64,000 nucleotides of DNA from positions 2,452,773 to 2,516,772 of the forward strand of contig NZ_CP030040.1 in NCBI RefSeq assembly GCF_003260995.1, written 5' to 3'. Each line of letters begins with the position of its first letter. Position 1 is the first letter of the stretch. The DNA comes from Acetobacterium sp. KB-1 (GTDB lineage Bacteria; Bacillota; Clostridia; Eubacteriales; Eubacteriaceae). A model generated the notes under the pieces. The model did no database searches, was not told the origin of the DNA, and saw only the letters and a list, made by a program, of their open reading frames with translations. Position numbers and translations under genes: made by a program. Below, in pieces: positions 11,707-48,795 of this stretch.

Positions 11707-11734
11707 TTGACATTTTTACTTTACATGATATAAT
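11707..11734 (+). promoter_or_regulatory. Sigma-A promoter of thiC
   Basis: TTGACA (11707-11712) and TATAAT (11729-11734) with a 16-base spacer, about 20 bases before the TPP aptamer. Both hexamers match the consensus perfectly. Confidence 0.85.
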
Positions 11735-11753
11735 GTTGGCAATTAAATACTGA

Positions 11754-11835
11754 TTTGCGGGGGGACTTATAAAGTTGAGAAGGTTAAAACCTGACCCTTT
11801 GAACCTGTTAGTTAATACTGACGTAGGGAAGCAAG
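11754..11835 (+). promoter_or_regulatory. TPP riboswitch (THI box) controlling thiC
   Basis: The leader contains the THI-box landmarks in order: a P1 arm TTTGC, GGGG, TTGAGA, ACCCTTTGAACCTG and GACGTAGGGAAGCAA, whose GCAA pairs with the opening TTGC. The aptamer starts about 13 bases after the predicted transcription start. A rho-independent hairpin lies 33 bases downstream, so thiamine pyrophosphate should favour premature termination and repress thiC. Confidence 0.93.
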
Positions 11836-11868
11836 GCGTTTTGGCTAATTTTCAAATACGTGTTTTCA

Positions 11869-11899
11869 GTGCTTTCCTATTCGGGAAGGCACTTTTTTT
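11869..11899 (+). terminator. Riboswitch-controlled terminator before thiC
   Basis: A 9-bp stem (11869-11877 with 11884-11892, one G-U pair) followed by seven T. Its place between the TPP aptamer and the thiC start makes it the expression platform. Confidence 0.85.
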
Positions 11900-11934
11900 G
11901 TGCCTAAAAATCTCTGATTTGAAAGGAATGTATT

Positions 11935-13248: not shown

Positions 13249-13359
13249 TCAACTTTATTTAATTTAGCACTTATCTTTTTTTTTGATCTGCCGATATTAA
13301 TTCTAACGGATTACGTCTTTTTGGGCGTGATCATTTCGTAAAAACATGGAGGTGGATTT

Positions 13360-14502
13360 ATGAAAATCGAAAGTTCAACCGTCACAATGGCAAGTCAAAG
13401 CAGTTATAGGGAAGCAACCAAATCTGTCGGATCTTTGAGAGTTTGGGATGCTCAGGGCAATGCCGTAACTTCAACCACAGCCAGCGCTTCTGCAAAGGGG
13501 ATGGATATCCTTGAGTTGTCAGAACAAGCTAAAAAGTTACCTGCTCAAACCCCTATATCAAATCAAACCCCAGTGTCAACAGTGGCCTCGGGAGATGAAA
13601 CCGCTTCGCTCTCCAGTAAAGAAGAACAGGAGCTAACGCTACTAGAACAAATGCTTAAGGCATTAACCCGAAAAAAAATGAAATTTGTGATGCCTAAAAA
13701 AATTACTTTGGAAAATCCGAAAATGAGTCAGTCCATTCAAAACGCCTATGCCAGTCGAAGTGCACTACTGACCGCTGCCGCCGGGTGGGCTCAGGGTTTA
13801 GCCGGTGCTCAACCCCGCAGTGCTTCTCCTAGTGGCGGCTTTGAATACAATCAGAGCGTCACCCACTATGAATCTGAAAGTACTTCATTTCAGGCTCAGG
13901 CAATGGTGAAAACTGCCGATGGCCGAGAAATCAATGTCAATCTGCAACTTTCCCTCAGCCGGGAATTTATGTCCTATTCCAATCTCAATATCAAAGCTGG
14001 CAATGAGCCGGTTCAGGTTGACCCGCTGGTTATTAATTTCGGTGCCGCCACCACCTCGCTGACGCAGCAGAAATATGCCTTTGATATTGATGCCAACGGC
14101 ACCCTGGATCAAATTTCCTTTGTTAGTCCCGGCAGCGGTTTCCTGGCCTTGGACCTTAATGGCGATGGTAAAATTAATGACGGCAGTGAGCTGTTCGGCC
14201 CGCAAAGCGGCAACGGTTTTGATGATTTGGCAAAATATGATTCCGATGGCAATAACTGGATCGACGAGAACGATCCCATCTATGATAAGCTACAGATCTG
14301 GTCCAAAGATTCCTCCGGTAACGATGTGTTAGTGGCACTGGGTCAGAAAGGCGTAGGCGCCATTTATCTGGGCAATGTCAGCACCAGCTTCGCACTCAAA
14401 GGGGCCGACAATCAAACCGATGGCCAACTGCAACGCACTGGCATCTATCTTAATGAAAATGGTTCGGCCGGAACGATTCAGCATATTGATCTGAGTATCT
14501 AA
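13360..14502 (+). CDS. Protein with calcium-binding EF-hand-like loops, unknown function
   Basis: A 380-residue protein without signal peptide or membrane segment. The first 140 residues are low-complexity, Ser/Thr/Ala/Gln-rich with a basic helix (LKALTRKKMKFVMPKK). The C-terminal part has LDLNGDGKINDGSELFG and a second loop YDSDGNNWIDENDPIYDKL, both matching EF-hand/dockerin-like DxDxDG calcium loops, flanked by beta-rich sequence. I have seen this double-loop module in uncharacterised bacterial proteins of similar length but know no function for it. The start has GGAGGTGG upstream. It is transcribed alone: a terminator follows at once. Export by a leaderless route, or a surface or flagellar role, would be guesswork. 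Confidence 0.75.
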   Translation: MKIESSTVTMASQSSYREATKSVGSLRVWDAQGNAVTSTTASASAKGMDILELSEQAKKLPAQTPISNQTPVSTVASGDETASLSSKEEQELTLLEQMLKALTRKKMKFVMPKKITLENPKMSQSIQNAYASRSALLTAAAGWAQGLAGAQPRSASPSGGFEYNQSVTHYESESTSFQAQAMVKTADGREINVNLQLSLSREFMSYSNLNIKAGNEPVQVDPLVINFGAATTSLTQQKYAFDIDANGTLDQISFVSPGSGFLALDLNGDGKINDGSELFGPQSGNGFDDLAKYDSDGNNWIDENDPIYDKLQIWSKDSSGNDVLVALGQKGVGAIYLGNVSTSFALKGADNQTDGQLQRTGIYLNENGSAGTIQHIDLSI

Positions 14503-36045: not shown

Positions 36046-37350
36046 TTAAACCACCTTGATACACAACTCAACAACGAACCCATCCGCATTATAACAATGG
36101 ATGCTGCCATCCATACCGGTCATAAACTGCCGGGCCAGATAAAGTCCCAGCCCAGATCCCGGGGTGTTTTGAACCGCTTCTCCAGAACCGCGAAAAAACT
36201 TTTCAAACACCAGCGGGCATTCATCGGGATTCACCCCATCCCCATAATCTCGGATTTTGACTTCCAGATACTGCTTATTTTTGTCCAAATTAAACCAGAT
36301 GTCGATAGCCGTATCGGCATATTTATAAGCGTTACTGATAACATTGTCAATCACCTGCTCCAGTCGCAGCGGATCACAACAAATCAGACATTCGACCAAA
36401 TCATTTTTTAAGCTGATCTTCCCAAAATGATCCATATCCTTAAACATCTGGATCAGGATGGTACTGGGCTGTTCACTCACATGAACCGCTAGCATTTCCA
36501 GTTCTTCCAGGGTTGCGTGGAAGAGATTGCTAATCAGCGCATCAATAATATCTGCTTTAGAATCGATCACGGTGATTTTTTCGATGCTTTCGGTGAGCGT
36601 CATTACCGCAGTTGACTCCGGTAAATCTTCACTTTTCACAGTTGCCAGTTTGATCTCCAGGAGCTCACAAATGGCCTTAATGGTCGCCACCGGTGTTTTA
36701 ATATCGTGGGATAGTTCCGCCACCAACTCTTTTTTGCTGATATTGGCCGCATATTCTCCCTGTCGGGCCTTTTTTAGTTCTTCCCGCATCAGATCAAAAC
36801 TTTCAGTGAAGGCGCCAAAGTAATTGCCTCGATCCATCGGTAGCCGAAATTCCAGATCACCATCGGCAACCTTCCGGGCAAACTGTTTCATCACACCAAA
36901 GGGCCGAAGAACAGAAGTATACACCAACCCTAAAACCAGATAAACCATCATCAACATAATGCCAAAGGTAAAGGAGATTATTGTCAGCAGATTTGTTTTC
37001 ATGGCTACTTCTTCACTGCCGTTGGTTAGAAAGATGATCTTACCTAACACCTCTTGTCGACCATCAGATGTAGTCAAATCCATGATGGCCTGACGATTCT
37101 TGATGCCATCAAACAGAAGCGCCTGATAGTTATCATCTGCAACAAGAGTGATCCGGTAAGACATCCCCGCAATCGTACCGGATTTTTCTACCTCACCTTG
37201 GGTCCACTCTTTTTCAATCGTTTTAACAACGTGGTTAATCTCTGCGACGTTCACCTGATTAATCTGGGTGGTATTTATCGTGATGACTGCGGCTATATAA
37301 ACGGCTATCATTAGTACCGTAAACAAGATAACGATATTTCTTATTTTCAT
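36046..37350 (-). CDS. Membrane sensor histidine kinase (OmpR-partner class)
   Basis: A 434-residue kinase: membrane helix at the N-terminus, an extracytoplasmic sensor of about 100 residues, second helix, HAMP, HisKA with the phospho-acceptor box ELSHDIKTPVATIKA, and HATPase_c with DNVISNAYKYAD, DYGDGVNP and GSGLGLYLARQ. All catalytic boxes are complete. ATG 37350 has GAGGAAATAC upstream and is preferred to a start 45 bases earlier. The ectodomain distinguishes it from BceS-type intramembrane sensors. It lies between its response regulator and an ABC exporter, which it likely controls. Confidence 0.92.
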   Translation of the reverse strand: MKIRNIVILFTVLMIAVYIAAVITINTTQINQVNVAEINHVVKTIEKEWTQGEVEKSGTIAGMSYRITLVADDNYQALLFDGIKNRQAIMDLTTSDGRQEVLGKIIFLTNGSEEVAMKTNLLTIISFTFGIMLMMVYLVLGLVYTSVLRPFGVMKQFARKVADGDLEFRLPMDRGNYFGAFTESFDLMREELKKARQGEYAANISKKELVAELSHDIKTPVATIKAICELLEIKLATVKSEDLPESTAVMTLTESIEKITVIDSKADIIDALISNLFHATLEELEMLAVHVSEQPSTILIQMFKDMDHFGKISLKNDLVECLICCDPLRLEQVIDNVISNAYKYADTAIDIWFNLDKNKQYLEVKIRDYGDGVNPDECPLVFEKFFRGSGEAVQNTPGSGLGLYLARQFMTGMDGSIHCYNADGFVVELCIKVV

Positions 37351-37397
37351 GTATTTCCTCAACTGATCGTTTTGTATCTGAATAATAAAGACCAAAG

Positions 37398-38120
37398 CTA
37401 TCCGTTTTCCCGGGTTTCAAACATATATCCGGTGCCCCAGATGGTTTTAATATATTTCGGTTGATTCGGGTTTTCTTCGATTTTCTCACGGATTTTGCGG
37501 ATATGGACATTCAGGGTGCCATCACTAAAAAATGCATCTCCCCAGATCATTTTAAATAACTCGTCTTTAGCAATCACCCAGTTTTTATTTTCATAGAGGT
37601 ATAAAAACAGCTTGAATTCCTTTGTTTTAAAACCCACGTCTTTTCCATCCCGATAGACTTTCATGGCATCCTTTTCAATTCTCAGGTTGCTATAGTTGTT
37701 TTTCTCTTGATCCTCAGAACTGACCGTATCGCTTCGCCCAGATTTTTTAGCCGCACCTTCATACCGCTTGATAATCACCTTTACCTTGGCAAGCAAAACA
37801 CTCAGAGAATAGGGTTTTTTGATATAGTCATCCCCACCAATATTAAGGGCAATCAGAACATCATCATCACTCTGGCGGGCGCTGATAAAAAGAATCGGGA
37901 TATCCGTTTTTTGGCGGAGTGCTTTACACAATTCAAAGCCGCTGTCTTTTCCCAGATTGATATCCAGCAAAATCAGTTTAACCTGGTTATTTCCCATGAA
38001 CAAGACACAATCATCAAAATTGCTCACAAAGGTGCAGGTCACGCCAAACATTTCAAAATATTCGCAGCTCGCTTTCGCCAATTCTACTTCATCATCGACA
38101 ATTAAACAATCCCAATTCAC
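37398..38120 (-). CDS. OmpR/PhoB-family response regulator
   Basis: A 240-residue regulator with receiver (CLIVDDEVELAKAS; phospho-acceptor Asp in LILLDINLGKDSGFEL; ISARQSDDDVLIALNIGGDDYIKKP) and a C-terminal winged helix (GTLNVHIRKIREKIEENPNQPKYIKTIWGTGYMF-type end). I choose the GTG at 38120 because GGAGTAAGT lies just before it and the receiver begins there; longer forms add an unlikely N-terminal tail. It heads the unit RR-HK-ATPase-permease on the minus strand. The targets are most likely the exporter genes 1.5 kb downstream. Confidence 0.92.
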   Translation of the reverse strand: MNWDCLIVDDEVELAKASCEYFEMFGVTCTFVSNFDDCVLFMGNNQVKLILLDINLGKDSGFELCKALRQKTDIPILFISARQSDDDVLIALNIGGDDYIKKPYSLSVLLAKVKVIIKRYEGAAKKSGRSDTVSSEDQEKNNYSNLRIEKDAMKVYRDGKDVGFKTKEFKLFLYLYENKNWVIAKDELFKMIWGDAFFSDGTLNVHIRKIREKIEENPNQPKYIKTIWGTGYMFETRENG

Positions 38121-38260
38121 ACTTACTCCAATCCTCCCGATGGCATCGGGAAAGTCAACCAATTTGATTAGGTACTAATCCTTTGTTAAATCATATCATT
38201 ATTCTGCCGCAATTGCATCTGGTTTGAATTCGAATTGCTGGCTGTTATCACTTAGATCCA

Positions 38261-38415: not shown

Positions 38416-39684
38416 TTACCTATTTTGCACTGGAAAAAATAGCTTGACATAGAATCTTTCGTCAGCTTTTTTAATATCAAGACTTCCGCCGTTTTGCTCC
38501 ACAAGTGTTTTTACAGCGGGCAAACCAATGCCATTGCTGTCTGTATCTAAATAAGCTCCCATATAATTTGAAATCATAATGCCAATCTCAGATGACTGTT
38601 TAATGATCGTTATTTCAACGGGCTTCGATGGGTCGGCATATTTTTTTATGTTGGAAAACAGGTTGTCAAATATTCGCCGCAGGTCAAATACGGGAAAGGA
38701 AAGGATGAATTCATCGTCAATGACCGGAAGGGTTGCATGAAAGCCTGCTGCCTGCAGATCAAAACACATTTCAGAAAGCAGTTGTGATAGCAGCAGCGTC
38801 CCTGAAATTGTTTCGGCAACGGTATCCGCTTTTGGGGTATCATTCACTTGAAAATGACGGAACATTTCATCGGAAAGGCTTTTCATTTGCTGTACTTTTT
38901 CAATGGCGCTCTTCAAATAGCGTTCTTCTTCTGACGCATTCCGATACTTTTTATAGCGGAGTATTTCAAGATAGCCCGTCAACTTGGTCAACGGCGTTCG
39001 CAAGTCATGCGATAAAGAGGTAATCAGTCGGCTGTTTGCCAGCACAGCTTCATTTTCTCGTGCCATCTGGTCGATTACTGAAAGCCGCATTCCCTCAATG
39101 CTGCGTCCAAGCTCAGCCAGCTCGTCCTCGCCTGGAGAATCGATGTGATAGCTGAGGTCACCTCCTGTGAGGATCTCCATTTCATGACTCAGATGCATAA
39201 TGCGATGGATGATCCGATAGACATAGGGAATTAAAATCAGGAAGAAGCAGATTGCCGCGATACCAAGGGAGATTACCATTCCAAGCCCATCATAATGAGA
39301 AGTAGACGGGTATGCATATGCATACACGACACCGTCCGAACAGTTCACCGGGATACCGACTTGCGTATCATCGTCTTCCTCCGGGATGTCCGCCTCAGGG
39401 CTGCTCGCCAAATAGAGATACATCGTGCGATAGTTCTTTTCCCATCTGACATCGCGTATTGCGTCATCGACAGTCAGCTCATTACTTGTCACATGTTCCT
39501 GAAAGCTCGCCACTGCCGAAGTTCCCACATTTGTCCAATAAGAATCGAACTCCGAGCCGTACAGGAACCACCATATAACGCCATCATACAGGAGTAAAAA
39601 GACAGCGAAGGAAATAATCAGCGCAATCGCCGCAACCGATGTGAATTTCAAACCCAGGCGGGATTTAAATTTGCTGCTATTCAA
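38416..39684 (-). CDS. Membrane sensor histidine kinase of the Dlt-like cassette
   Basis: A 422-residue kinase with two membrane helices around a roughly 110-residue external region, HAMP, HisKA box SLSHDLRTPLTKLTGYLEIL and a HATPase domain. The N-box reads FDNLFSNIKKYAD and the final G-box SNGIGLPAVKTLVEQNGGSL. A canonical D-x-G-x-G is replaced by SNYMGAYLDT, as I have seen in VanS-like or BaeS-like small-genome kinases; ATP binding may still occur. The start is TTG, overlapping the response regulator by eight bases, preceded by AAAGGGG inside that gene. Divergent from the dlt-like operon, so the cassette carries its own regulators. Confidence 0.88.
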   Translation of the reverse strand: MNSSKFKSRLGLKFTSVAAIALIISFAVFLLLYDGVIWWFLYGSEFDSYWTNVGTSAVASFQEHVTSNELTVDDAIRDVRWEKNYRTMYLYLASSPEADIPEEDDDTQVGIPVNCSDGVVYAYAYPSTSHYDGLGMVISLGIAAICFFLILIPYVYRIIHRIMHLSHEMEILTGGDLSYHIDSPGEDELAELGRSIEGMRLSVIDQMARENEAVLANSRLITSLSHDLRTPLTKLTGYLEILRYKKYRNASEEERYLKSAIEKVQQMKSLSDEMFRHFQVNDTPKADTVAETISGTLLLSQLLSEMCFDLQAAGFHATLPVIDDEFILSFPVFDLRRIFDNLFSNIKKYADPSKPVEITIIKQSSEIGIMISNYMGAYLDTDSNGIGLPAVKTLVEQNGGSLDIKKADERFYVKLFFPVQNR

Positions 39685-40375
39685 TGCGATACCCCTTTCC
39701 CCAAACCGTTTTCAGCAATGTTGGTTCCTGCGGGTCTTCCTCAATCTTTTCCCGCAGTCTGCGGATGTGAACCATTACCGTGTTGCTGGACGAGTAATAA
39801 AACGGTTCCTCCCAAATGCTCTCAAATAAATTTTGCGCAGAGAAAAGCCTGCCTCTGTAGGTCAGCAGTAACCGGAGAATCTGATACTCCTTGTCAGTCA
39901 GGTTCAGTTCTTCTCCATCTTTGCAAACAGCGTTTCGGTCCTGATACAGTATGATTCCACGCCATTCCAACGGAGTTTCATTGTCAATATTGCCTTTCCC
40001 TCTGTACGTCTGATAGCGCCGTAGGAGTCCCTTTACCCGGGCAAGAAGCTCGGCATAAGAAAACGGCTTTGCGAGATAATCGTCCCCGCCGGATGAAAAT
40101 CCAAGCGTCAAGTCGGAATCTTTATTTTTTGCCGTAAGAAATAAAATGGGAACATTACTTTCCGCTCTCATTTTCAAGCAGACCTGATACCCGGACATAC
40201 CGGCCATCATAATATCCAAAATAACAAGATCCACATCATCGGAAAAGACCGACAACGCCGTTTCCCCGTTTGCTGCTTCCAGCGTGGTAAAACCTTCGCT
40301 CTCCAGCAGAACACAGACGATCTCACGGATTTCAGAATCATCATCTACGATCATAATTTTTGCGGCGTTCTTCAT
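39677..40375 (-). CDS. OmpR-family response regulator of the Dlt-like cassette
   Basis: A 232-residue regulator: receiver with IMIVDDDSEIREI, acceptor Asp in LVILDIMMAGMSG, LFLTAKNKDSDLTLG and YLAKPFSYAEL, then a winged-helix domain ending LREKIEEDPQEPTLLKTVWGKGYRIE. GGAGGCGGAG precedes ATG. It is transcribed away from the VTT/dltA-like operon across a 190-base region, a layout common for regulators that control the divergent operon. Low identity to the response regulator at 37.4 kb outside conserved motifs suggests they are not recent copies of each other. Confidence 0.92.
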   Translation of the reverse strand: MKNAAKIMIVDDDSEIREIVCVLLESEGFTTLEAANGETALSVFSDDVDLVILDIMMAGMSGYQVCLKMRAESNVPILFLTAKNKDSDLTLGFSSGGDDYLAKPFSYAELLARVKGLLRRYQTYRGKGNIDNETPLEWRGIILYQDRNAVCKDGEELNLTDKEYQILRLLLTYRGRLFSAQNLFESIWEEPFYYSSSNTVMVHIRRLREKIEEDPQEPTLLKTVWGKGYRIE

Positions 40376-40566
40376 GTCGCTCCGCCTCCACTCTATGTAT
40401 TGCTGTTATCTTACCATCTGCCCGTCACACAAGCAACGAAGATATAGCCCTATCAGGGTCAGTTAAGAATACTTAAGGTTTTCGTAAGCCCCAGCGTCAG
40501 AATATGTAGATATAATGCAAAAATAAAATGAAAACTGCGGGCGGGCATATCTCGTCGGGGGTGCGG

Positions 40567-41145
40567 ATGAAACAGCGTGAAAAACAGCTAAAGATTTATT
40601 TCCTTATACTATTTTTGCTCTTACTCCTTGTTACCGGAGTATTCCTCGCAATAGGTTTCTTCCGAGGATACTTTGGATCATTGGAAGCGTTTCGAACCTA
40701 TATTGACACCTTTGGCCCGTTCGCGCCGCTGATGTTGACGGCGATTCAAACCATGCAGGCATTTCTGCCGATCATCCCAAGCTTTTTCGGATTCGCTGCC
40801 GGTGCCGGATTATTTGGAGCGTTTGGCGGCTTCCTTTGCAATTATATCGGAATCAGCCTTGGCTCCATCATTGCATACTACCTGGCCAGACGCTTCGGAA
40901 TCAGATTTGTGAAACAGATTATACCGGAGAAAAAATATAATGCCGTCGTTGAATGGGCAGCCTCGAAAAAGAGCTATACGATTATTCTTTTTCTTTCCAT
41001 TCTGCTTCCGCTGGCGCCGGACTGTGCCCTGTGTTATTTTTCCGGCCTGATCAATATGCCAACGAAAAAATATATTCTGATTATCGTGACTGCAAAGCCC
41101 TGGTGTATCCTGCTTTACAGCATTTTCTTCAGCAACGTACTTTAG
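40567..41145 (+). CDS. VTT-domain (TVP38/DedA-like) membrane protein
   Basis: A 192-residue protein with five or six membrane helices and the VTT signatures FLPIIPSFFGFAAGAGLFG (re-entrant loop), FGGFLCNYIGISLGSIIAYYLARRFG and LLPLAPDCALCYFSGLINM. DedA/TVP38 relatives flip or transport lipids such as undecaprenyl phosphate and phosphatidylethanolamine, which would suit a cassette that modifies envelope polymers. ATG 40567 follows GGGGGTGCGG; an in-frame ATG 39 bases upstream is less likely. First gene of the plus-strand operon. Its stop is followed at once by AGGAGG and a short broken reading frame. Confidence 0.82.
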   Translation: MKQREKQLKIYFLILFLLLLLVTGVFLAIGFFRGYFGSLEAFRTYIDTFGPFAPLMLTAIQTMQAFLPIIPSFFGFAAGAGLFGAFGGFLCNYIGISLGSIIAYYLARRFGIRFVKQIIPEKKYNAVVEWAASKKSYTIILFLSILLPLAPDCALCYFSGLINMPTKKYILIIVTAKPWCILLYSIFFSNVL

Positions 41146-41154
41146 GAGGTTCCT

Positions 41155-41253
41155 ATGCTTAAATTTTAAAATTTCACCGTGATTCTCATTTATGTGGGTA
41201 TGTTGACCTCATTTTTAGGTATCGTTTATGCTCTGCGCTTTCAAAGGCACTGA
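41155..41253 (+). pseudogene. Short single-TM peptide frame with an internal stop (DltX-like position)
   Basis: AGGAGGTTCCT precedes an ATG at 41155. The frame reads MLKF, a TAA, then NFTVILIYVGMLTSFLGIVY and ALRFQRH before the next stop at 41251. If the TAA were a sense codon this would be a 32-residue peptide with one membrane helix. In classical dlt operons a small membrane peptide, DltX, sits just before dltA. The sequence lacks a clear DltX C-terminal motif, so this is a candidate only. It may be a true pseudogene, start at the internal GTG, or be a chance hydrophobic stretch. The rest of the gap (41254-41377) has a second short frame ending DLQRFYLEESDSE that I could not place. Confidence 0.35.
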
Positions 41254-41377
41254 TTTCTCGATACATAAGAAAACATCGCGTTCCCATGTGTGATTTACGA
41301 GGGCAAAATATCGCTGATTTGCAGCGTTTTTATCTCGAAGAAAGCGATTCAGAATAATATGAATGTGAGGAAACACC

Positions 41378-42883
41378 ATGAAAAATGTATTGGAATATAT
41401 GGAGCACCATGTGCTTTGCCGCCCGGACAAGATTGCCGTCATTGATAAAACTTCTTCCAACTCCTATCGGAAATTGGAACATACCTGTAAGACTGTCGGG
41501 ACAGCGCTGTCAAGGCACATCAAAGTCGGTCAGCCGGTCGCAGTCTTGATGGAAAAAGGCATCCCCGCGCTATGTGCATTTTGGGGCGCCATTTATGCAG
41601 GAGGCTACTATGTGCTGCTTAATCCGGAGCTGCCGGTATTCCGCCTGAAGCAGATTCAGAAAGTACTTCAGGCGGAATATGTGATTGTCGATTTTCAGCA
41701 CGCAAAGCTTGCGGCGGAACTTTTTCCAGCCGGAGCAATCCTGATGATGGACGATCTGCAAAAAGAATCCATAGATTTGGAGCGTCTGCGCTTTGTGCGC
41801 AGCAGGATGATCGACACCGATCCTCTTTATGTCAACTTCACCTCTGGCTCTACTGGTGTTCCAAAGGGTGTTGTGGTCAGTCACCGTTCTGTGATCGATT
41901 TTATCAATGTTTTCACAGATACCTTCCAGTTTTCATCCACGGATGTCTTTGGCAATCAGGCACCCTTCGATTTTGATGTTTCCGTCAAGGATATCTATAC
42001 TTCAGCAAAGGTTGGAGGGACACTGGCGATTATTCCAAAACCCTTTTTTTCACGACCAAAGGCGCTTCTGGACTGGATCTGCGAGATTCACATCACTGTC
42101 ATGATCTGGTCCGTTTCAGCACTGTGCCTGATCAGCGTGTTTCACGGTCTGGACTACCTTATCCCCACTTCCGTGCGTAAGATTCTTTTTAGCGGCGAGA
42201 TCATGCCGGAAAAGCATCTCCGAGCATGGCTGAAACATTTGCCGGACGCGCAGTTTGTCAATCTCTACGGACCTACGGAGATCACCTGTAACTGCACCTA
42301 TCATGTCATTGACAGAAACGGTGATTATTCTCATGGGATTCCCATTGGGCGTCCCTTCCCCAATGAGCAGGTGTTCCTGCTCGACGCCAACGCACAAGAA
42401 GTGACAACCTCCGGTGTTGTCGGTGAGATCTGCGTACGGGGAACGGCACTGGCGCTTGGATACTTCCGAAACCCTCAGCAGACGGAGGTGGCTTTTGTAC
42501 AGAATCCGCTCAATACCAGTTACCCCGAACGCATTTATAAAACAGGCGACCTTGGAAAGTATCTGGACAATGGGGAACTGTTGTTCTGCGGCCGGAAGGA
42601 TTTTCAGATCAAATACATGGGACACCGGATTGAATTAGAAGAAATCGAGCGGGCGGTTGCGAAAATCCCCGGTGTTGATCAGTGTTGCTGTGTGTTTGAC
42701 ACAAAAAAGGAGCGGCTATACGGCTTCTACACCGGCAGTCCAAAGCAACCCAGTCTCCGCAGTCAGCTTGCCGAGTCTTTACCTGTATATATGGTCCCGC
42801 GCACACTTTATCAAATCAAGAAATTTCCATTGAATAAAAACGGAAAAATCGACCGCAAGCGACTGCTTGACCGAAAGGAGTAA
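41378..42883 (+). CDS. DltA-like amino acid adenylation enzyme
   Basis: A 501-residue stand-alone A-domain that should activate an amino acid with ATP and load it on the carrier protein two genes on. Core motifs: A3 YVNFTSGSTGVPKG (151-164), A4 region APFDFDVS (195-202), A5 NLYGPTE (295-301), A7 YKTGDLGKY (387-395), A8 GRKDFQIKYMGHRIELEEIE (405-424), A10 NKNGKIDRK with K490. D198/D200 supply the substrate-amine aspartate. In DltA the FCGE motif has a cysteine that contacts the alanine side and matters for D/L choice; here the motif is FSGE with S272. Substrate may not be D-alanine. GAGG precedes ATG. Confidence 0.88.
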   Translation: MKNVLEYMEHHVLCRPDKIAVIDKTSSNSYRKLEHTCKTVGTALSRHIKVGQPVAVLMEKGIPALCAFWGAIYAGGYYVLLNPELPVFRLKQIQKVLQAEYVIVDFQHAKLAAELFPAGAILMMDDLQKESIDLERLRFVRSRMIDTDPLYVNFTSGSTGVPKGVVVSHRSVIDFINVFTDTFQFSSTDVFGNQAPFDFDVSVKDIYTSAKVGGTLAIIPKPFFSRPKALLDWICEIHITVMIWSVSALCLISVFHGLDYLIPTSVRKILFSGEIMPEKHLRAWLKHLPDAQFVNLYGPTEITCNCTYHVIDRNGDYSHGIPIGRPFPNEQVFLLDANAQEVTTSGVVGEICVRGTALALGYFRNPQQTEVAFVQNPLNTSYPERIYKTGDLGKYLDNGELLFCGRKDFQIKYMGHRIELEEIERAVAKIPGVDQCCCVFDTKKERLYGFYTGSPKQPSLRSQLAESLPVYMVPRTLYQIKKFPLNKNGKIDRKRLLDRKE

Positions 42884-42886
42884 AAT

Positions 42887-44092
42887 ATGAACAAAATCAA
42901 ATGGAGAGGATTATTAGAAAAACAGTCAACGCCTATGTACGCTTACGACCTTTCTGTACTGGAAGAACGTATCCGTTCCCTGCGTAGCTGTTTGCCCGAG
43001 GGTGTCAGACTGTGCTATGCAGTGAAAGCCAACACCTTTATACTTGCGACAGTAAGTGCGCTAGTCGATCGACTGGAAATCTGTTCTCCGGGAGAACTGC
43101 GGATTTGTTACCAAATGGGGTTGCCCACGAACAAATTTGTGGTTTCCGGTGTTTATAAGACGCCCGCCCTGATTCGAGAACTAATTGCCCAGGGACCGTC
43201 CGGGGAGCTTTACACTGTGGAATCCATGCATCAATTCAGCATCTTAAGCGATACGGCTCATCTGGCGAAAAAACGCATTTCCATTCTGCTCCGCCTGACC
43301 AGCGGCAACCAATTTGGACTTTCCGAGGATGAATTGGAACATATCGTCAGCGAGTACCAGCACGATCCATTCCTTGAAATCAGAGGCATCCAGTATTTTT
43401 CCGGTACCCAGAAATCATCTTTGAAGCGGCTTAAACGGGAGCTGGACTATCTGGACAGCGTACTTAACAAATTACAAACTGACTGCGGCTATTCCGCTCC
43501 TGAATTGGAGTTCGGACCCGGACTTCCGGTATCCTACTTTATCGATGAGGACTTTGACGAAGACGCCTTTTTGCATGAATTCTCAGCCTTGCTGACCAGA
43601 ATGCAGTTCAAGACAAAGCTTACGCTGGAGCTTGGACGCAGCATCGCCGCCAGTTGCGGAACCTATTTAACAAGCGTTGTCGATAAAAAAACAAACAAAG
43701 GGCAGAACTACGCCATTGTCGATGGCGGTATACACCAACTTGTCTATTATGGTCAGTCAATGGCAATGAAGCATCCCATTGTCCACGAGCTCACTCGCCG
43801 CGGGGGCACAGAGCACGAGCCATGGAATATCTGCGGTTCGCTTTGCACCACTAACGATATCTTGGTAAAGCAGTTTCCCATGTATCGCCCGGAAATCGGC
43901 GATGTGATCGTATTTGAAAACGCCGGTGCATATTGTGCGGCGGAAGGAATCGCCTTGTTTTTAAGCAGGGATCTACCGGCGGTCATGTTACTGAAAAACG
44001 GTTGCGAACCCGTCTGTGTGCGGGGGCATATGCCAATAGAAATGTTAAATACACCGAATAATGAAATGAGGGAAAGAATATGGAACGCCTGA
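42887..44092 (+). CDS. PLP-dependent decarboxylase, LysA/exosortase-associated type
   Basis: A 401-residue fold-type III PLP enzyme of the diaminopimelate/ornithine decarboxylase superfamily. The PLP lysine is K47 in CYAVKANT. The glycine-rich phosphate loop is EFGPGLPVSYF (208-218). The second-chain catalytic cysteine is C320 in CGSLCTTND, and AGAYCAAEG closes the site. The strand that reads HxGSQ in LysA is YFSGTQ here, and CESGD is CTTND, closer to what I recall of the exosortase-associated branch (TIGR03099) than to biosynthetic LysA. It begins three bases after the adenylation gene's stop and overlaps the carrier gene by 13, so it is integral to the operon. Confidence 0.85.
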   Translation: MNKIKWRGLLEKQSTPMYAYDLSVLEERIRSLRSCLPEGVRLCYAVKANTFILATVSALVDRLEICSPGELRICYQMGLPTNKFVVSGVYKTPALIRELIAQGPSGELYTVESMHQFSILSDTAHLAKKRISILLRLTSGNQFGLSEDELEHIVSEYQHDPFLEIRGIQYFSGTQKSSLKRLKRELDYLDSVLNKLQTDCGYSAPELEFGPGLPVSYFIDEDFDEDAFLHEFSALLTRMQFKTKLTLELGRSIAASCGTYLTSVVDKKTNKGQNYAIVDGGIHQLVYYGQSMAMKHPIVHELTRRGGTEHEPWNICGSLCTTNDILVKQFPMYRPEIGDVIVFENAGAYCAAEGIALFLSRDLPAVMLLKNGCEPVCVRGHMPIEMLNTPNNEMRERIWNA

Positions 44093-44310
44093 TTAAAATT
44101 TTGAAAGACATAGAACCGGAAATTAATTACATAAACTGCAAAGACCTGATCGATGGACATCATTTGGATTCGCTCTCCATCATTGCCTTGGTGGGAGAGC
44201 TGGAGGAAGAATTCGATATTACAATCCCGACCGTCGAGATAACGCCGGACAACTTCAATTCCGCAGAATCTCTCTGGGCAATGGTAACGCGACTAATTGA
44301 GGAAGAATAA
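44080..44310 (+). CDS. DltC-like carrier protein
   Basis: A 76-residue acyl/peptidyl carrier of normal DltC length. The phosphopantetheine serine is S31 in GHHLDSLSIIALVGELEEEF, followed by the acidic recognition helix. It should hold the aminoacyl thioester made by the adenylation enzyme for delivery to the MBOAT protein. The start (ATG with GAGGGAAAG upstream) overlaps the decarboxylase end by 13 bases, and its stop is one base from the MBOAT ATG. The tight packing argues for fixed stoichiometry. A phosphopantetheinyl transferase must come from elsewhere in the genome. Confidence 0.92.
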   Translation: MERLIKILKDIEPEINYINCKDLIDGHHLDSLSIIALVGELEEEFDITIPTVEITPDNFNSAESLWAMVTRLIEEE

Positions 44311-44311
44311 T

Positions 44312-45913
44312 ATGCCCTCGATTCCATCCTATTTTTCCGTACAGTTTCTTGCGATTTTGTTGCCAGTCACTGTCACGACTTATGCTTTCCTTCCGCAAAA
44401 GCCGCGGCGGATTGTACTTTTACTCGCGAGCTACGCCTTTTTCTGGGCCGTCAGCGGAAAGCTGTTGGTTTATCTTCTGCTATCCACGCTCTCCATCCAC
44501 CATTTTGGTCTCTGGCTTGCCGACAATCAAAATCGTTGTGACCAGGCTTTGGAGCAGGCTCAAAAGGAAAACCGCAAGGGCATCAAAGTGTTATATCAGC
44601 GGCAGCAAAGAGGGATTATTGCGTTTGCTGTTATTCTCCATATAGGCGTTCTGGCCGTTCTTAAATATTCGGCTTTTTTTGCAACAAACCTGAATGTCGG
44701 CTTTGATCTTTTAAAGCTGCCTGCTTCGATTGCTATACCTTCTTTTGTGTTGCCAATCGGCATTTCTTTTTATACCATGCAGGCGCTATCGTATGTTTTG
44801 GATGTCTATCACCGAAAAATATCAGCTGACCGCAACCTATTTCGTCTGGCCCTTTATATGAGTTTCTTTCCACAGATCATGGAAGGGCCAATCTGCCGGT
44901 ATACCGAAACCGCAGCGCAGTTGTGGAGCGTACCGCCCATTGAATATCGCAACCTTACCTTTGGCCTGCAACGCATTCTGTTCGGTATTCTGAAAAAAAT
45001 GGTCGTCGCAGATCGCCTGAACCTGCTGATCAGCAATGTATTCAACAGCTATCAGGACTATGACGGCTTCGTAATCGCTGTCGCCGCAGTGTGCTATACC
45101 ATTCAGCTTTACATGGACTTCTCCGGCACAATGGATGTAGCCCTTGGCATCGGACAGATTTTCGGTGTTTCATTGACCGAAAACTTTCAGCGCCCTTTTT
45201 TTTCCAAGACTATTCCTGAATTTTGGAAGCGGTGGCATATTACGCTGGGGGCCTGGTTCCGTGATTATATCTTCTATCCTGTTTCCCTGTCAAAGCCCAT
45301 GAAACGCCTTTCTTCGAAGGCGAGAAAACGACTTGGCCATCACTTTGGTACACTGCCCACCAGTGCCATCGCGCTCTTTTACGTGTGGCTATGCAATGGA
45401 TTGTGGCATGGCGCTGGCTGGAACTTCATTTTTTTCGGCATGTATCATTTCGTGCTGATTTTGAGTGGAAACATAGCAGAACCTTTTGTTGCAAAATCTG
45501 CGGAAAAGTTGCATATCTCACGATCAGGTCCGCTTTATCATGGATTTCAAATCGTCCGAACCGCCGCTTTGGTTTGTATCGGTGAAATGTTTTTCCGAGC
45601 CAACGGACTTCGTACCGGACTTGCAATGCTTAAAAAGATTTTTACAGACTTCACTTTCAACACCATTGTGGAAAAGACTTTCTTTTCTTTTGGTGCAGAC
45701 TTATATGACTATATCATTGTCGCTATTGTCTTGGCTGTCATTTTTTTTATTGAACTTCGGCAAGAAAAGGGCCTCTCCATTCGGGAACGCATCAGTACAA
45801 AGCCTGTAGTGGAACGTTTTGCGGTGTATTATGCTCTGATTATGGCAATTGTCATATTTGGCGCATATGGAACCGGTTATGTCCCTGTCGATCCGATTTA
45901 TGCAAGCTTTTAG
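44312..45913 (+). CDS. DltB-like MBOAT acyltransferase
   Basis: A 533-residue membrane-bound O-acyltransferase with about ten to twelve helices, longer than typical DltB (about 400) and closer to alginate-acetylase-type members in length. MBOAT marks: SFFPQIMEGPICRY, QLYMDFSGTMDVALGIG, FWKRWHITLGAWFRDYIFYP and the invariant histidine H366 in NGLWHGAGWNF. It should draw the aminoacyl group from the carrier and move it across the membrane to an envelope polymer hydroxyl. The adopted ATG is one base after the carrier stop; GAGGAAG lies ahead of it. An upstream TTG in the carrier gene is rejected. Confidence 0.9.
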   Translation: MPSIPSYFSVQFLAILLPVTVTTYAFLPQKPRRIVLLLASYAFFWAVSGKLLVYLLLSTLSIHHFGLWLADNQNRCDQALEQAQKENRKGIKVLYQRQQRGIIAFAVILHIGVLAVLKYSAFFATNLNVGFDLLKLPASIAIPSFVLPIGISFYTMQALSYVLDVYHRKISADRNLFRLALYMSFFPQIMEGPICRYTETAAQLWSVPPIEYRNLTFGLQRILFGILKKMVVADRLNLLISNVFNSYQDYDGFVIAVAAVCYTIQLYMDFSGTMDVALGIGQIFGVSLTENFQRPFFSKTIPEFWKRWHITLGAWFRDYIFYPVSLSKPMKRLSSKARKRLGHHFGTLPTSAIALFYVWLCNGLWHGAGWNFIFFGMYHFVLILSGNIAEPFVAKSAEKLHISRSGPLYHGFQIVRTAALVCIGEMFFRANGLRTGLAMLKKIFTDFTFNTIVEKTFFSFGADLYDYIIVAIVLAVIFFIELRQEKGLSIRERISTKPVVERFAVYYALIMAIVIFGAYGTGYVPVDPIYASF

Positions 45914-45927
45914 AAAGGCGGTAAACC

Positions 45928-46884
45928 ATGAAAATCAAGAACATACTGGGAGGCGTAGCATTCATTGCCGGACTTATGATCCTGCTGGCCGTATCATCCT
46001 ATTTGCTTGTTCCCAGAGACAATACGGCTGCAGCAGGAATGGAAGCAACTTCGGCCAACGGAATCCTTGGTGAAAAGGAAAACTCCATCGACATTCTGGT
46101 GCTCGGAGACAGCGAATCCTATTTCTCCATCTCCCCTTTGCAGCTTTGGAAAGAAAAAGGCTACACCGCATATGTCTGCGGAACCGCGGGTCAGCATTTA
46201 ACCTACAGCAACACCATGCTGCACAGGGCATTTCAAAAGCAAAAGCCTAAAATTGTAATCTTGGAGACCCTTGCAATCTACCGCAAAATGTCATTGAGCA
46301 ATGTGGGACTGGCTGAGATCGCTCGCTATTTTCCCGTATTTGAATATCATAACCGATGGAAATCATATGATCTGAAAGGAGTTGGAAACGGAGTCAAATA
46401 CAACTGGACTGAGGATTACAAGGGCTATTTTTACTCCAATCAAGTCGCTCCCGCTCACAATTTGGAATACATGACGCCTACAGAAGAGTCTGCGAAAATT
46501 GCAAAAACAAACAGATACTTCATACAAAAAATCAAAGACTTCTGTGATGAAAATGGAGCCGAATTAATCCTTCTCAGCACACCGAGCACTAAAAATTGGA
46601 ATTATAAGTCACACAACGGAATCGCGATCCTTGCCAGCGAATTGAACTGCAAATATATTGATTTAAATCTGATGAATGATACCGTCGGCATAGACTGGAG
46701 CCTGGATACCCGTGACGGTGGGGATCATTTAAATTCTTCCGGAGCAAACAAAGTAACTCATTATTTAGCGGAATACCTGTCAGGCCGGGGCATCTTATCA
46801 GATCACCGTGGAGACAAAAACTACGCGCGCTGGGATGAGTGCTTGGTAAAGCTGAACGCAAAAGCTAAGGGCACATCTAATTAG
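45928..46884 (+). CDS. DltD-like exported SGNH-fold protein
   Basis: A 318-residue protein anchored by one N-terminal helix (about 5-28) with an extracellular SGNH/GDSL-type domain. Block I is LVLGDSESYFSISP with S62 as the probable nucleophile. CGTAGQHLTYSNTM resembles block II, STPSTKNWN block III, and DGGDHLNSSGA (263-273) holds the expected catalytic histidine H267. It fills the DltD slot, handing the aminoacyl group to the final acceptor, or may be an AlgX/PatB-like acyltransferase. AAAGGCGG precedes the ATG. Last gene of the operon; a terminator within the right direct repeat follows. Confidence 0.82.
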   Translation: MKIKNILGGVAFIAGLMILLAVSSYLLVPRDNTAAAGMEATSANGILGEKENSIDILVLGDSESYFSISPLQLWKEKGYTAYVCGTAGQHLTYSNTMLHRAFQKQKPKIVILETLAIYRKMSLSNVGLAEIARYFPVFEYHNRWKSYDLKGVGNGVKYNWTEDYKGYFYSNQVAPAHNLEYMTPTEESAKIAKTNRYFIQKIKDFCDENGAELILLSTPSTKNWNYKSHNGIAILASELNCKYIDLNLMNDTVGIDWSLDTRDGGDHLNSSGANKVTHYLAEYLSGRGILSDHRGDKNYARWDECLVKLNAKAKGTSN

Positions 46885-46965: not shown

Positions 46966-47038
46966 CTCAAAAAAGGCATGTCCTTCCATTGAAAGAAACA
47001 TGCCTTTTCTTTATAAATATTTTATCGATTAAGGTCTT
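46966..47038. repeat. Right copy of direct repeat, with bidirectional terminator
   Basis: Matches 38261-38340. It contains a perfect 11-bp stem AAAAGGCATGT (46971-46981) with ACATGCCTTTT (46998-47008), T-rich on both strands, so it ends both the Dlt-like operon and the convergent lipoprotein gene. Its last ten bases are the 3' end of that lipoprotein gene. Confidence 0.75.
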
Positions 47039-48525
47039 TGACCGCCCTGACCGGGTTGACCCTGACCACCCTGGCCCGGCCCACCCATGCCGGTCTGGCC
47101 ATTACTGGTGACCACGCCCGTCAGGGGGATTTCCACCGTCTGGCTGCCACAGGTTAGTGTATAAGTGGAACCCTGGACCAAATCTGGGGTGCTGATCACC
47201 ACCGATTGATAGGTTTTATCCGGCGTATAGGAAACCACCTTATTGCCACTGGCATCGGTTAACTTTACTTCTGTCCCCGCTGCACAGGATGATGTGAGGT
47301 TATAAAGCAATGATGCCTGGGTCGATGTTTCTGAAAATGATTGAGCCATTCCGGTACTACCGGCAATAACCACGGTTCCGCCACTGACATCGGCGCTGCC
47401 ATTATAATCCAGGGCGCCATTGCCGCTATTGGTGGGGCCACTGACCGTCACCGTGCCACCGGAAATATAGAGATTCCCATTGCTATCGAGTCCGTCTCCG
47501 GCTGCATTAACATCGATAGTGCCGCCGGAAATTGAAACATAGACGTTTGAGTCATTTTGCATCGCAGCACCACCGCCTTTTACACCGGTATCGGTTTCTG
47601 CGGCACTGGCACTGGCGCCATTAAGCCCGTCATCCGATGAAGTAATATTAATGGTTCCGTCTTCTACAATAATCGCAGTCCCTTCAATCCCCTCGGTGCT
47701 GTTTTTAATGGTAATCGTCCCGCCACAAATGTAGACATAGCCTTTTGTGTTATCATCAGCATTCTTTGAGGTCATCCCCTTGCCTGCTGAAGAATCAATG
47801 GTAATGACACCATCTTTTATTTTGACACTGTTTTTACCACTGAGCGCATCATCTGCTGAGGTGATATTATAAATACCTCCGCTAATCACCAGATCATCTT
47901 TTGACACAATCCCGTGGTTATCACTTGTTGTAATATTTAGGGTTCCTTCGCCATTGATGGTCAAATCTTCTTTGCTGAAAATAACCCCATCAACATTATT
48001 TTCATCGGTCTGAACATAGGTACCACTATCGGTTAAGGTATTGACGGTGTTTTCATTCAATGTTACAAATACCTTGTCGGCACTTTTTACATAGATCGGG
48101 GCATTGTCTGAACAATTGATGGTCGCGCCACTTAGCACAATCTGAATCTTATCGCTATCGGCCGCTGCCACGACGATCTGCCCGTCCGTCAAATTCCCGG
48201 TGACTACATAAGTCCCTTCTTTCGTAATGGTAAGCACGCCATTACTGGCGGTGGCACCGTCACCGGTTACCTGAATGTCACTGCCATCCAGAGTTACAGT
48301 AACTGCACTGGTGTCATCATAGGTTGTTTTCTGATCGCGATCAGTAAACTCCGGATCGACAATAATTGTCGATGTGGGTGATACTGCTGCGGTTAAAACT
48401 GAGGCGGTTTCTATCACCGCCGCCGCAGTGGTTTCTGCCGGTGCTGTCTCGGAATCCAAACTGCATCCGGCAAACACTACCATGATGAACAATAAAAATG
48501 GTATGAAAATCTTTAGTTTTTTCAT
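47029..48525 (-). CDS. Lipoprotein with carbohydrate-binding beta-helix (Cthe_2159/PF14262 family)
   Basis: A 498-residue exported protein. Signal and lipobox: KKLKIFIPFLLFIMVVFAGC with the lipid-anchored cysteine at 21. A Thr/Ala-rich linker follows, then a right-handed beta-helix of repeating GTLNITTSDNHGI / DGVITIDSS / GGTITIKNS / DGTINITSSDDG units. The C-terminus is Gly/Gln/Pro-rich. This is the family of Clostridium thermocellum Cthe_2159, reported to bind pectic polymers and calcium. A surface adhesive or polysaccharide-binding role is likely. ATG 48525 has GAGAGGATG upstream; the earlier ATG adds five residues. The last codons lie in the repeat that recurs at 38.3 kb. Confidence 0.85.
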   Translation of the reverse strand: MKKLKIFIPFLLFIMVVFAGCSLDSETAPAETTAAAVIETASVLTAAVSPTSTIIVDPEFTDRDQKTTYDDTSAVTVTLDGSDIQVTGDGATASNGVLTITKEGTYVVTGNLTDGQIVVAAADSDKIQIVLSGATINCSDNAPIYVKSADKVFVTLNENTVNTLTDSGTYVQTDENNVDGVIFSKEDLTINGEGTLNITTSDNHGIVSKDDLVISGGIYNITSADDALSGKNSVKIKDGVITIDSSAGKGMTSKNADDNTKGYVYICGGTITIKNSTEGIEGTAIIVEDGTINITSSDDGLNGASASAAETDTGVKGGGAAMQNDSNVYVSISGGTIDVNAAGDGLDSNGNLYISGGTVTVSGPTNSGNGALDYNGSADVSGGTVVIAGSTGMAQSFSETSTQASLLYNLTSSCAAGTEVKLTDASGNKVVSYTPDKTYQSVVISTPDLVQGSTYTLTCGSQTVEIPLTGVVTSNGQTGMGGPGQGGQGQPGQGGQRP

Positions 48526-48795
48526 TAAACATCCTCTCATTTCTCTCTTTTTAAAATATTTTTACGAAGCATTTTTTAAGTCCTTTTTATTCTCAGACAG
48601 TTGAAGAACCTTTAGCATCGCAATGGGAATCTTACAATAATTCTGTGATACCCGTCTCTTTTATTTTAATTATAAGCGGGCAATGTGATGGTTATATGGA
48701 TAAATGCTGTTTTTTTATTGATATAAGCCGTGTTCTTATTTTAATTGGTTGTTTTTTGTTAATTAAATATTGTAGCATCGTTATTTTATTTTTTT

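What the first reader, a model, noticed from the sequence alone, without database searches (positions are those of the whole stretch)
40567..46884. Dlt-like envelope aminoacylation operon with a built-in PLP decarboxylase
Adenylation enzyme, carrier protein, MBOAT and exported SGNH protein match DltA, DltC, DltB and DltD in role and partly in order, but a LysA-fold decarboxylase is inserted between the adenylation and carrier genes, with a 13-base overlap that rules out a loose neighbour. Classical dlt operons have no decarboxylase. A decarboxylated product can still be adenylated if the parent is a diacid: meso-diaminopimelate would give lysine, aspartate beta-alanine, glutamate GABA. The DltA-like enzyme has Ser in place of the FCGE cysteine linked to alanine recognition. 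Together this suggests an envelope polymer esterified with a non-alanine amino acid made on site, perhaps a more cationic one. A divergent TCS and a VTT lipid-flippase-like protein complete the module. The pairing of ligase and decarboxylase echoes exosortase A-associated TIGR03098/TIGR03099 proteins, but there is no exosortase here.
Basis: partly seen in the sequence, partly recalled or inferred. Interest (0 to 1): 0.93.

Follow-up and report, generated by a model that had tools for sequence, protein, structure and literature searches.

The report
Dlt-like operon making beta-alanyl envelope esters
This bacterium carries a five-gene operon, found in the same order in many gut bacteria, that resembles the system which puts D-alanine on cell-wall polymers but includes a decarboxylase, and it is predicted to decorate the cell envelope with a different amino acid, likely beta-alanine, probably made while attached to its carrier protein.

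Summary
Window 41378-46884 encodes, in tight order, an amino-acid adenylation enzyme (A), a LysA-fold PLP decarboxylase (DC), a carrier protein, an MBOAT and an SGNH-fold protein. The order is not unique to this genome: it is exact in 73 of 80 related loci, mostly gut and rumen Clostridia; four more are cut by contig ends. It is not a dlt operon proper: the enzymes miss the DltA, DltB and DltC cut-offs, and A and MBOAT fall outside the DltA and DltB groups, so the likeness looks independently assembled. The near-invariant A pocket (DVKSLSLCNK) has Lys239, as in surfactin's glutamate domain, and no acidic residue besides Asp235; DC has lost LysA residues that hold diaminopimelate and resembles BtrK, which decarboxylates a carrier-bound amino acid. 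Best explanation: aspartate is loaded through its side-chain carboxyl, decarboxylated on the carrier to beta-alanyl-carrier (as proposed for bolagladin, and shown with 3-methylaspartate for vicenistatin), then passed by MBOAT and SGNH to an envelope polymer. Substrate, timing of decarboxylation and acceptor are inferred. My paper searches (open-licence papers only) found no description of such an operon.

The parts
41378..42883 (+). Stand-alone amino-acid adenylation enzyme (A), 501 aa; 10-residue pocket code DVKSLSLCNK with Lys at position 239 (residue K204, codon 41987-41989)
   Evidence: TIGR01733 341 bits, over its cut-off of 317; DltA TIGR01734 284 bits, under its cut-off of 560; code identical in 71 of 79, K239 in 79 of 79
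42887..44092 (+). Alanine-racemase-fold PLP decarboxylase (DC), 401 aa; PLP Lys47, catalytic Cys320, Tyr349 kept; LysA diaminopimelate-holding residues lost
44080..44310 (+). Carrier protein, 76 aa, with the phosphopantetheine Ser31 in DGHHLDSLSI; gene overlaps DC by 13 bases
   Evidence: PF00550 4.3e-05; Ser31 in 79 of 79
44312..45913 (+). MBOAT membrane acyltransferase, 533 aa from ATG 44312 (the mechanical ORF starts at TTG 44297); WHG histidine kept
   Evidence: PF03062 1.4e-13; TIGR04091 DltB 164 bits, under 375; His in 78 of 78; outside the DltB group
45928..46884 (+). SGNH-fold protein with an N-terminal membrane-anchor-like helix (DltD/PatB-like in role), 318 aa; GDSE Ser62, Asp263, His267
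38416..40375 (-). Divergent VanRS-like two-component system (kinase 38416-39684, regulator 39677-40375), probable regulator of the operon
   Evidence: a regulator and kinase lie within 4 kb upstream of A in 36 of 64 loci, within 4 kb downstream of the operon in 3 of 52
40528..41145 (+). VTT-domain membrane protein; neighbour, not part of the conserved unit
   Evidence: PF09335 1.7e-17; among the loci examined matched only in Acetobacterium

Best explanation
The operon's adenylation enzyme is predicted to load an acidic amino acid, likely aspartate through its side-chain carboxyl, onto the operon's carrier protein, where the PLP enzyme would likely remove the alpha-carboxyl to leave beta-alanyl-carrier, which the MBOAT and SGNH proteins would then likely hand across the membrane to an envelope polymer. 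Steps: (1) A makes the aminoacyl-adenylate and a thioester on the carrier (enzyme class shown by sequence; substrate inferred from the pocket). (2) DC decarboxylates the amino acid while it sits on the carrier, as BtrK and VinO do and as is proposed for BolN (inferred from residues, fold and cassette logic). (3) MBOAT takes the aminoacyl group from the carrier and SGNH esterifies it to a polymer outside, as DltB and DltD do for D-alanine (inferred from protein classes and conserved pairing; acceptor unknown, an LtaS-like polymer is one candidate). The result would be beta-alanylation in place of D-alanylation: the same charge change, made from aspartate without drawing on D-alanine. A two-component system upstream probably switches it on under envelope stress (inferred).
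Against: Nothing here shows a substrate, a product or an acceptor. Asp235 with Lys239 is also what a domain activating the alpha-carboxyl of glutamate shows, and a carrier-bound alpha-thioester of Glu or Asp could not be alpha-decarboxylated. In the survey that I read in passages, the aspartate code quoted has Lys at 278, not 239, and the Glu/Gln code quoted has Gln at 239 (PMC12283262). A is not specially close to the beta-aminoacyl enzymes in the PDB list (best 60 of 212 shown). BtrK leads LysA structures by only 1.6 Z units at 22% identity, its second entry ties with one of them, and Foldseek ranks SbnH first. NCBIfam gives LysA nearly the score of TIGR03099 (154 against 180 bits), and all 25 members scanned match both (best 1.3e-52 and 3.9e-54). 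The LysA active-site loop is missing in the family but present, though different, in BtrK. MBOAT-SGNH pairs elsewhere transfer plain acyl groups (recalled), so transfer of this aminoacyl group is inferred from linkage only.
Confidence: 0.48

Rival explanations
1. Glutamate version: A would load glutamate through its side-chain carboxyl and DC would make GABA on the carrier, as BtrK does in butirosin biosynthesis; the envelope would carry GABA esters.
For: Lys239 is the surfactin glutamate-type residue; BtrK, which decarboxylates glutamyl-carrier (PMC7857480), is the best match by VIA-align.
Against: In a side-chain-loaded glutamate the amino group lies at the gamma position, far from Asp235, which is invariant here. 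GABA thioesters tend to close to a lactam (recalled), and apart from the two-component system and one transporter-like family no gene family recurs beside the operon in more than 8 of 80 loci, so no capping enzyme is conserved there.
Confidence: 0.16
2. Diaminopimelate on the carrier: A would load meso-diaminopimelate by one alpha-carboxyl and DC would decarboxylate its free end, giving lysyl-carrier and lysyl esters. This is the carrier-bound form of the first reader's idea.
For: Asp235 fits an alpha-amino acid and Lys239 could hold the distal carboxylate; DC is a LysA relative; loss of the specificity-helix Arg would fit because that carboxyl would be the thioester.
Against: The pocket has no acidic residue for the second amine, and the LysA Glu next to the catalytic Cys, a position that contacts the substrate's side-chain amino group in related enzymes (PMC7857480), is Thr or Ser in 81 of 81. 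I met no characterised cassette of this kind in my reading.
Confidence: 0.14
3. Free-acid route: DC would decarboxylate a free amino acid (aspartate, glutamate or diaminopimelate) and A would then activate the product, so decarboxylation comes before loading.
For: The gene order A-DC-carrier does not fix the order of reactions; many alanine-racemase-fold decarboxylases act on free amino acids (PMC7857480).
Against: An invariant Lys239 would have no carboxylate to bind in beta-alanine or GABA and would repel lysine. DC lacks the specificity-helix Asp or Arg and the acid next to Cys that hold free basic or dicarboxylic substrates.
Confidence: 0.12
4. An ordinary D-alanylation system in which the PLP protein is an alanine-racemase-like enzyme that supplies D-alanine; some homologues are named alanine racemase.
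For: PF01168 matches the N-terminal barrel; sources name two of the 120 listed homologues alanine racemase; the transfer half resembles DltB and DltD in class.
Against: The C-terminal domain is the decarboxylase type PF00278, the decarboxylase Cys is in 81 of 81, TIGR00492 alr matches only 2 of 25 members at up to 1e-3, and A falls outside the DltA group with a charged pocket residue that none of 7 DltA-like proteins has.
Confidence: 0.05

Closest known systems
Dlt system (DltA, DltB, DltC, DltD), D-alanylation of teichoic acids
   Same: Stand-alone A enzyme, small carrier, MBOAT and anchored SGNH protein in one operon; by analogy cytoplasmic loading, then transfer across the membrane.
   Different: Contains a decarboxylase; scores under the DltA, DltB and DltC cut-offs; A and MBOAT outside the DltA and DltB groups; charged substrate pocket.
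BolO/BolC/BolN (bolagladin), VinN/VinL/VinO (vicenistatin), FlvN (fluvirucin): beta-aminoacyl-carrier cassettes
   Same: A enzyme + free-standing carrier + PLP decarboxylase (BolN described as BtrK-like) as a unit (PMC7756342, PMC11284099).
   Different: Those feed polyketide or peptide assembly lines in natural-product clusters; here the unit is joined to a membrane transfer pair.
BtrK/BtrI (butirosin), L-glutamyl-[carrier] decarboxylase
   Same: Fold, catalytic residues, C-T motif, QFG and GTQ motifs.
   Different: 22% identity; the family lacks a loop of about 14 residues that BtrK and LysA have.
Exosortase A-associated TIGR03098 ligase and TIGR03099 decarboxylase
   Same: Pairing of AMP ligase and PLP decarboxylase; TIGR03099 is the best NCBIfam match of DC.
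   Different: 178 of 592 and 180 of 478 bits needed; no exosortase (PF09721) match in the genome.
MBOAT-SGNH O-acylation pairs such as PatA/PatB and AlgI/AlgJ
   Same: Membrane MBOAT with a dedicated SGNH partner; PatB among the fold matches.
   Different: Those take plain acyl groups without an adenylation enzyme or carrier (recalled).

Membership tests
Classical Dlt system | DltA equivalog TIGR01734 over cut-off (559.85 bits) | tested here: not met
   284.2 bits; outside the DltA group, held at 100/98. The cut-off is strict: of 11 DltA-like proteins of the class at E up to 1e-150 (501-565 bits) only 2 pass it
Classical Dlt system | DltB equivalog TIGR04091 over cut-off (375 bits) | tested here: not met
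   164.2 bits; outside the DltB group, held at 100/100
Classical Dlt system | DltC equivalog NF003464 over cut-off (68 bits) | tested here: not met
   28.8 bits
Classical Dlt system | DltD-like SGNH protein | tested here: inconclusive
   SGNH fold shown; DltD 6pfx found at E 3.8e-05 with poor overall overlap, TM-score 0.42
Classical Dlt system | Activation of D-alanine and D-alanyl esters on teichoic acid | not testable with these tools
   needs enzyme assay and wall analysis
Diaminopimelate decarboxylase (LysA) | TIGR01048 over cut-off (297.9 bits) | tested here: not met
   154.4 bits
Diaminopimelate decarboxylase (LysA) | Arg on the specificity helix and Glu after the catalytic Cys | tested here: not met
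   18 of 18 LysA-type proteins have both; 0 of 81 family members have either
Carrier-bound amino-acid decarboxylases (BtrK, VinO, BolN) | Alanine-racemase-fold PLP decarboxylase with PLP Lys, catalytic Cys and Tyr | tested here: met
   Lys47, Cys320 and Tyr349 in 81 of 81; fold match
Carrier-bound amino-acid decarboxylases (BtrK, VinO, BolN) | Encoded with a cognate free-standing carrier and a loading enzyme | tested here: met
   73 of 80 loci in exact order, 4 cut by contig ends; A-DC-carrier kept alone in G193
Carrier-bound amino-acid decarboxylases (BtrK, VinO, BolN) | Activity on aminoacyl-carrier, not on the free amino acid | not testable with these tools
   needs reconstitution
Exosortase A-associated TIGR03098/TIGR03099 pair | Both over cut-off and an exosortase in the genome | tested here: not met
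   178.3 of 592 and 180.4 of 478 bits; no PF09721 match in the window's genome
Alanine racemase | Alanine-racemase C-terminal domain in place of the decarboxylase one | tested here: not met
   PF00278 decarboxylase sheet domain found, no alanine-racemase C-terminal domain among the hits; Cys320 in 81 of 81
MBOAT-SGNH transfer pair | MBOAT with the conserved His next to an SGNH protein with its Ser and His | tested here: met
   PF03062; WHG His in 78 of 78; Ser62 in 74 and His267 in 75 of 75; model fold

The most novel reading that the evidence does not exclude
A widespread, independently assembled counterpart of the Dlt system in gut Clostridia and some other anaerobes: an antibiotic-type beta-aminoacyl-carrier cassette joined to an envelope transfer pair, so that aspartate is decarboxylated on the carrier and cell-envelope polymers are beta-alanylated instead of D-alanylated.
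Probability: 0.42. Interest if true: 0.87.

Novelty: new variant of a known kind. Interest (0 to 1): 0.76.

Why it matters
D-alanylation by Dlt is the standard way Gram-positive bacteria lower the negative charge of their wall and resist cationic peptides (recalled). A second, unrelated route to an aminoacyl-decorated envelope, found in many gut and rumen anaerobes (303 confirmed loci in the species-genome collection; 6373 database proteins at E up to 1e-20 to the decarboxylase, of which only the best 120 were listed and some may belong to sister families) and made from a different amino acid, would change how wall charge, peptide resistance and host sensing are read in these species. In this genus 0 of 19 genomes reach the DltA or the DltB cut-off. 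It would also link beta-amino-acid chemistry known from antibiotics to cell-surface biology, and it can be tested with three purified proteins.

Tried and rejected
Rejected or led nowhere: (1) FCGE-to-FSGE as proof of non-alanine specificity: position 301 varies in DltA-like proteins of the class (I 3, A 2, C 1, V 1 of 7). (2) VTT as part of the unit: no match at 1e-4 outside the Acetobacterium loci. (3) Mutual exclusion with classical dlt: in 291 genomes of the class 9 have DC (E up to 1e-60) and 11 a DltA (E up to 1e-150), none both, but 0.34 would be expected by chance, so this says nothing. (4) Acceptor from neighbourhood: apart from kinase and regulator families and one family in 20 loci that reads like an ABC transporter (by eye, not tested), no gene family recurs in more than 8 of the 80 loci. 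In G193 the MBOAT-SGNH pairs lie apart from the loading genes, one of them among genes that read like sugar-polymer synthesis, but that pair's SGNH scores only 70 bits against the family profile; no acceptor follows. (5) Promoter and terminator scans: promoter-like sites no more than in shuffles (10 against 9.6); terminator-like sites 11 against 6.3, none of them after the last gene. (6) Papers: searches found none that describes such an operon; others (exosortase-associated pair; pocket codes as strings) found nothing; the VinN structure paper is not held. The library holds open-licence papers only. (7) Alignment A4 was made with one wrong row (an SGNH coordinate of L075 among MBOATs) and is not used. 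(8) A first script missed the LysA set because of a too-narrow motif; it was redone with phmmer hits. (9) One search repeated a structure search with a limit so strict that it returned nothing; not used.

Rows dropped or repeated: A counts rest on 79 rows (the window and 78 of 80 loci; L047 and L080 too short); DC on 81; carrier on 79; MBOAT on 78; SGNH on 75. The 80 loci are the best of 303. The 18 proteins used as LysA are decarboxylase homologues of the window's own genome and of relatives (L001, L006-L022), taken as LysA for their motifs and not shown to be so. In one search the eighth DltA locus (L131) gave no sequence under the motif filter and was dropped, leaving 7, of which one (L132) passes the DltA cut-off. 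The DltB rows are MBOAT-like frames beside those DltA genes, not tested otherwise. Four of the ten regions repeat loci, among them G008, which is the A. wieringae record of L023.

Papers, what I saw: PMC11284099 passages and the whole of section 5; PMC7756342, PMC7857480, PMC10662134, PMC5785472, PMC9338922, PMC11355689, PMC12283262, PMC9113097 and PMC11356792 passages only; all others search listings only.
Full report
What is there. On the + strand, 41378-46884, five genes follow each other with gaps of 3, -13, 1 and 14 bases: adenylation enzyme (A), PLP decarboxylase (DC), carrier, MBOAT, SGNH protein. A VTT-domain gene lies before them and a VanRS-like two-component system diverges upstream.

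How conserved it is. A scan of the species-genome collection with a profile of DC gave 303 confirmed relatives, of which the best 80 were kept. In these, the order A-DC-carrier-MBOAT-SGNH is exact in 73; four loci end at a contig edge inside the operon; L096 and L097 carry a second MBOAT-SGNH pair and L083 is rearranged. The hosts are mostly gut and rumen Clostridia by their record titles, with Erysipelotrichaceae (Traorella) and Coriobacteriaceae (Enorma). These loci were selected by similarity. In an evenly drawn sample of 291 genomes of the class, 9 have a DC at E up to 1e-60; 8 of the 9, own genome included, carry all five genes together and one (G193) carries A-DC-carrier only; three of the 8 are contigs already among the 80. 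A further relative, G021, with 37% identity at DC, also has the full set, with its MBOAT broken by a stop. Within the genus, only 2 of 19 genomes have a close DC, the own one and G008, which is the A. wieringae record of L023, so the operon is accessory there.

Two modules. In G193 the three loading genes stand alone, and five MBOAT matches with 33-42% identity to the window's lie elsewhere. I looked at four of them: each has an SGNH-like neighbour, two scoring 238 and 246 bits against the family profile and two only 70 and 31; in a tree one of the four groups with the family at 99/96. With the doubled transfer pairs of L096 and L097, this says that A, DC and carrier form one unit and MBOAT with SGNH another. 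DC therefore belongs to the chemistry done on the donor side. SGNH is the most divergent of the five (mean pairwise identity 0.44 against 0.58 for A), and more than one SGNH match is listed in seven loci (L057, L069, L072, L076, L094, L096, L097) against more than one MBOAT in three (L041, L096, L097), which would suit a fixed donor and varying acceptors (inference). Divergence of all five families is correlated over 73 operons, each pair above all 100 permutations.

Regulation. A response regulator and a histidine kinase lie within 4 kb upstream of A in 36 of 64 loci long enough to tell, against 3 of 52 downstream (Fisher p 2.8e-9); loci are related, so the p-value is generous. In the window they are divergent; in 26 of the 36 the regulator points the same way as the operon.

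Is it Dlt? By class of protein it works like one, but it is not one by the tests. A scores 284 bits against the DltA equivalog (cut-off 560), MBOAT 164 against DltB (375), carrier 29 against DltC (68). The DltA cut-off is strict: of 11 DltA-like proteins of the class at E up to 1e-150 (501-565 bits) only 2 pass it; the window's A lies far below them. In trees, 14 family A enzymes form a group at 100/100 and 7 DltA-like proteins another at 100/98; 10 family MBOATs group at 100/99, nearer to other MBOATs of the genus and of G193 than to 7 DltB-like proteins, which sit apart at 100/100 (unrooted, drawn at midpoint). No genome of the genus (0 of 19) reaches the DltA or DltB cut-off.

What A may activate. 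A is an amino-acid adenylating enzyme (TIGR01733 over its cut-off). Aligning core motifs, its ten pocket positions read DVKSLSLCNK; 71 of 79 family members are identical, and D235, V236, K239, S301, C330, N331 and K517 do not vary in the 79. The same code, with L/I/M at 299 and L/V at 322, is found in all ten regions, six of which are not among the 80. So one substrate is expected across the family. Asp235 and Lys517 are the pair that hold amino and carboxylate groups (PMC11355689, passages). Lys239 is the position whose change in the surfactin glutamate domain shifted it towards glutamine (same passages), whereas arginine pockets have Glu239 and Asp278 (PMC12283262, passages). Against this, the same survey quotes a Glu/Gln code with Gln239 and an Asp code with Lys278. 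The simplest reading is a substrate with an extra carboxylate and without an extra amine. The numbering of position 278 rests on my alignment by motif and is the least certain of the ten.

Putting it together. Known pathways use this kind of trio. In bolagladin biosynthesis BolO, like VinN, is proposed to adenylate the beta-carboxyl of aspartate and load it on the free carrier BolC, and BolN, a BtrK relative, to decarboxylate the isoaspartyl thioester to beta-alanyl-carrier; deleting bolN stops production and beta-alanine does not restore it (PMC7756342). VinN, VinL and VinO do the same with 3-methylaspartate, decarboxylation requiring the thioester (PMC11284099), and FlvN takes aspartate. In this class of enzyme the conserved Asp binds the beta-amino group, so Asp235 here does not exclude a side-chain-loaded aspartate. 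I therefore favour aspartate to beta-alanyl-carrier, then transfer by MBOAT and SGNH. Beta-alanine is an isomer of D-alanine, about the same size for a DltB-like channel, and its use would spare the D-alanine pool (inference).

What remains open. The pocket alone would also fit glutamate, and a diaminopimelate loaded by one end is not excluded; these are given as rivals. The acceptor is unknown. The genome encodes one clear sulfatase-domain protein of 637 residues that resembles LtaS weakly (57 bits of a 970 cut-off), so a lipoteichoic-acid-like polymer is possible but not shown.

Verdict on the finding. Its chemistry is probably different from what was proposed: carrier-bound, acidic precursor, product with one amine. 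It is a new variant of a known kind (Dlt-like aminoacyl transfer) and, if the beta-alanine reading holds, a widespread and apparently undescribed one; the statement on the literature rests, which cover open-licence papers only.

Noticed in passing
L096 from 2910 to 5581; L097 from 11188 to 13854: A second MBOAT-SGNH pair is inserted between the decarboxylase and the carrier gene, so one loading unit seems to feed two transfer pairs.
   Followed up: partly
L069, frames from 12986, 13966, 14979 and 15974: Four SGNH-family matches in a row follow the MBOAT.
   Followed up: no
L148 (G193:C1:1-15000) and L162-L165: Stand-alone A-decarboxylase-carrier unit with several unlinked MBOAT-SGNH pairs elsewhere in the same genome; one pair lies among genes that read like sugar-polymer synthesis.
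   Followed up: partly
L075: A contig titled Streptococcus suis strain SSHP-D carries the operon of gut Clostridia; the assembly may be mislabelled or contaminated.
   Followed up: no
L147, MBOAT frames 6975-7661 and 7665-8510: The MBOAT reading frame of the 37%-identical relative (G021) is interrupted by a stop, so that copy may be inactive; described only.
   Followed up: no
window 36046-38162 (-): A second regulator-kinase pair lies directly beside the one next to the operon; both pairs are kept in the A. wieringae locus L023.
   Followed up: no
window 47029-48540 (-): Convergent gene for a Cthe_2159-type carbohydrate-binding protein (PF14262, 1.2e-77), kept beside the operon in the A. wieringae locus.
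   Followed up: partly
window 46972-47009: Inverted repeat AAAAGGCATG / CATGCCTTTT with an 18-base loop between the convergent genes, read by eye; a possible two-way terminator that the scan does not list.
   Followed up: no
G000:C1:3484848-3486284 (L122): An NRPS adenylation domain of the same genome shows a pocket code that also begins DVKS (DVKSIGSISK).
   Followed up: no
A-domain alignment, position 301: Seven DltA-like proteins of the class differ at the position of the FCGE cysteine (I, A, V, C), so it may not be a general mark of alanine activation.
   Followed up: partly
decarboxylase residue K295: A mostly conserved basic residue (Lys 65, Arg 7, Gln 7, His 2 of 81) stands where LysA-type proteins have Tyr or His; its role is not explained by the proposed mechanism.
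   Followed up: no
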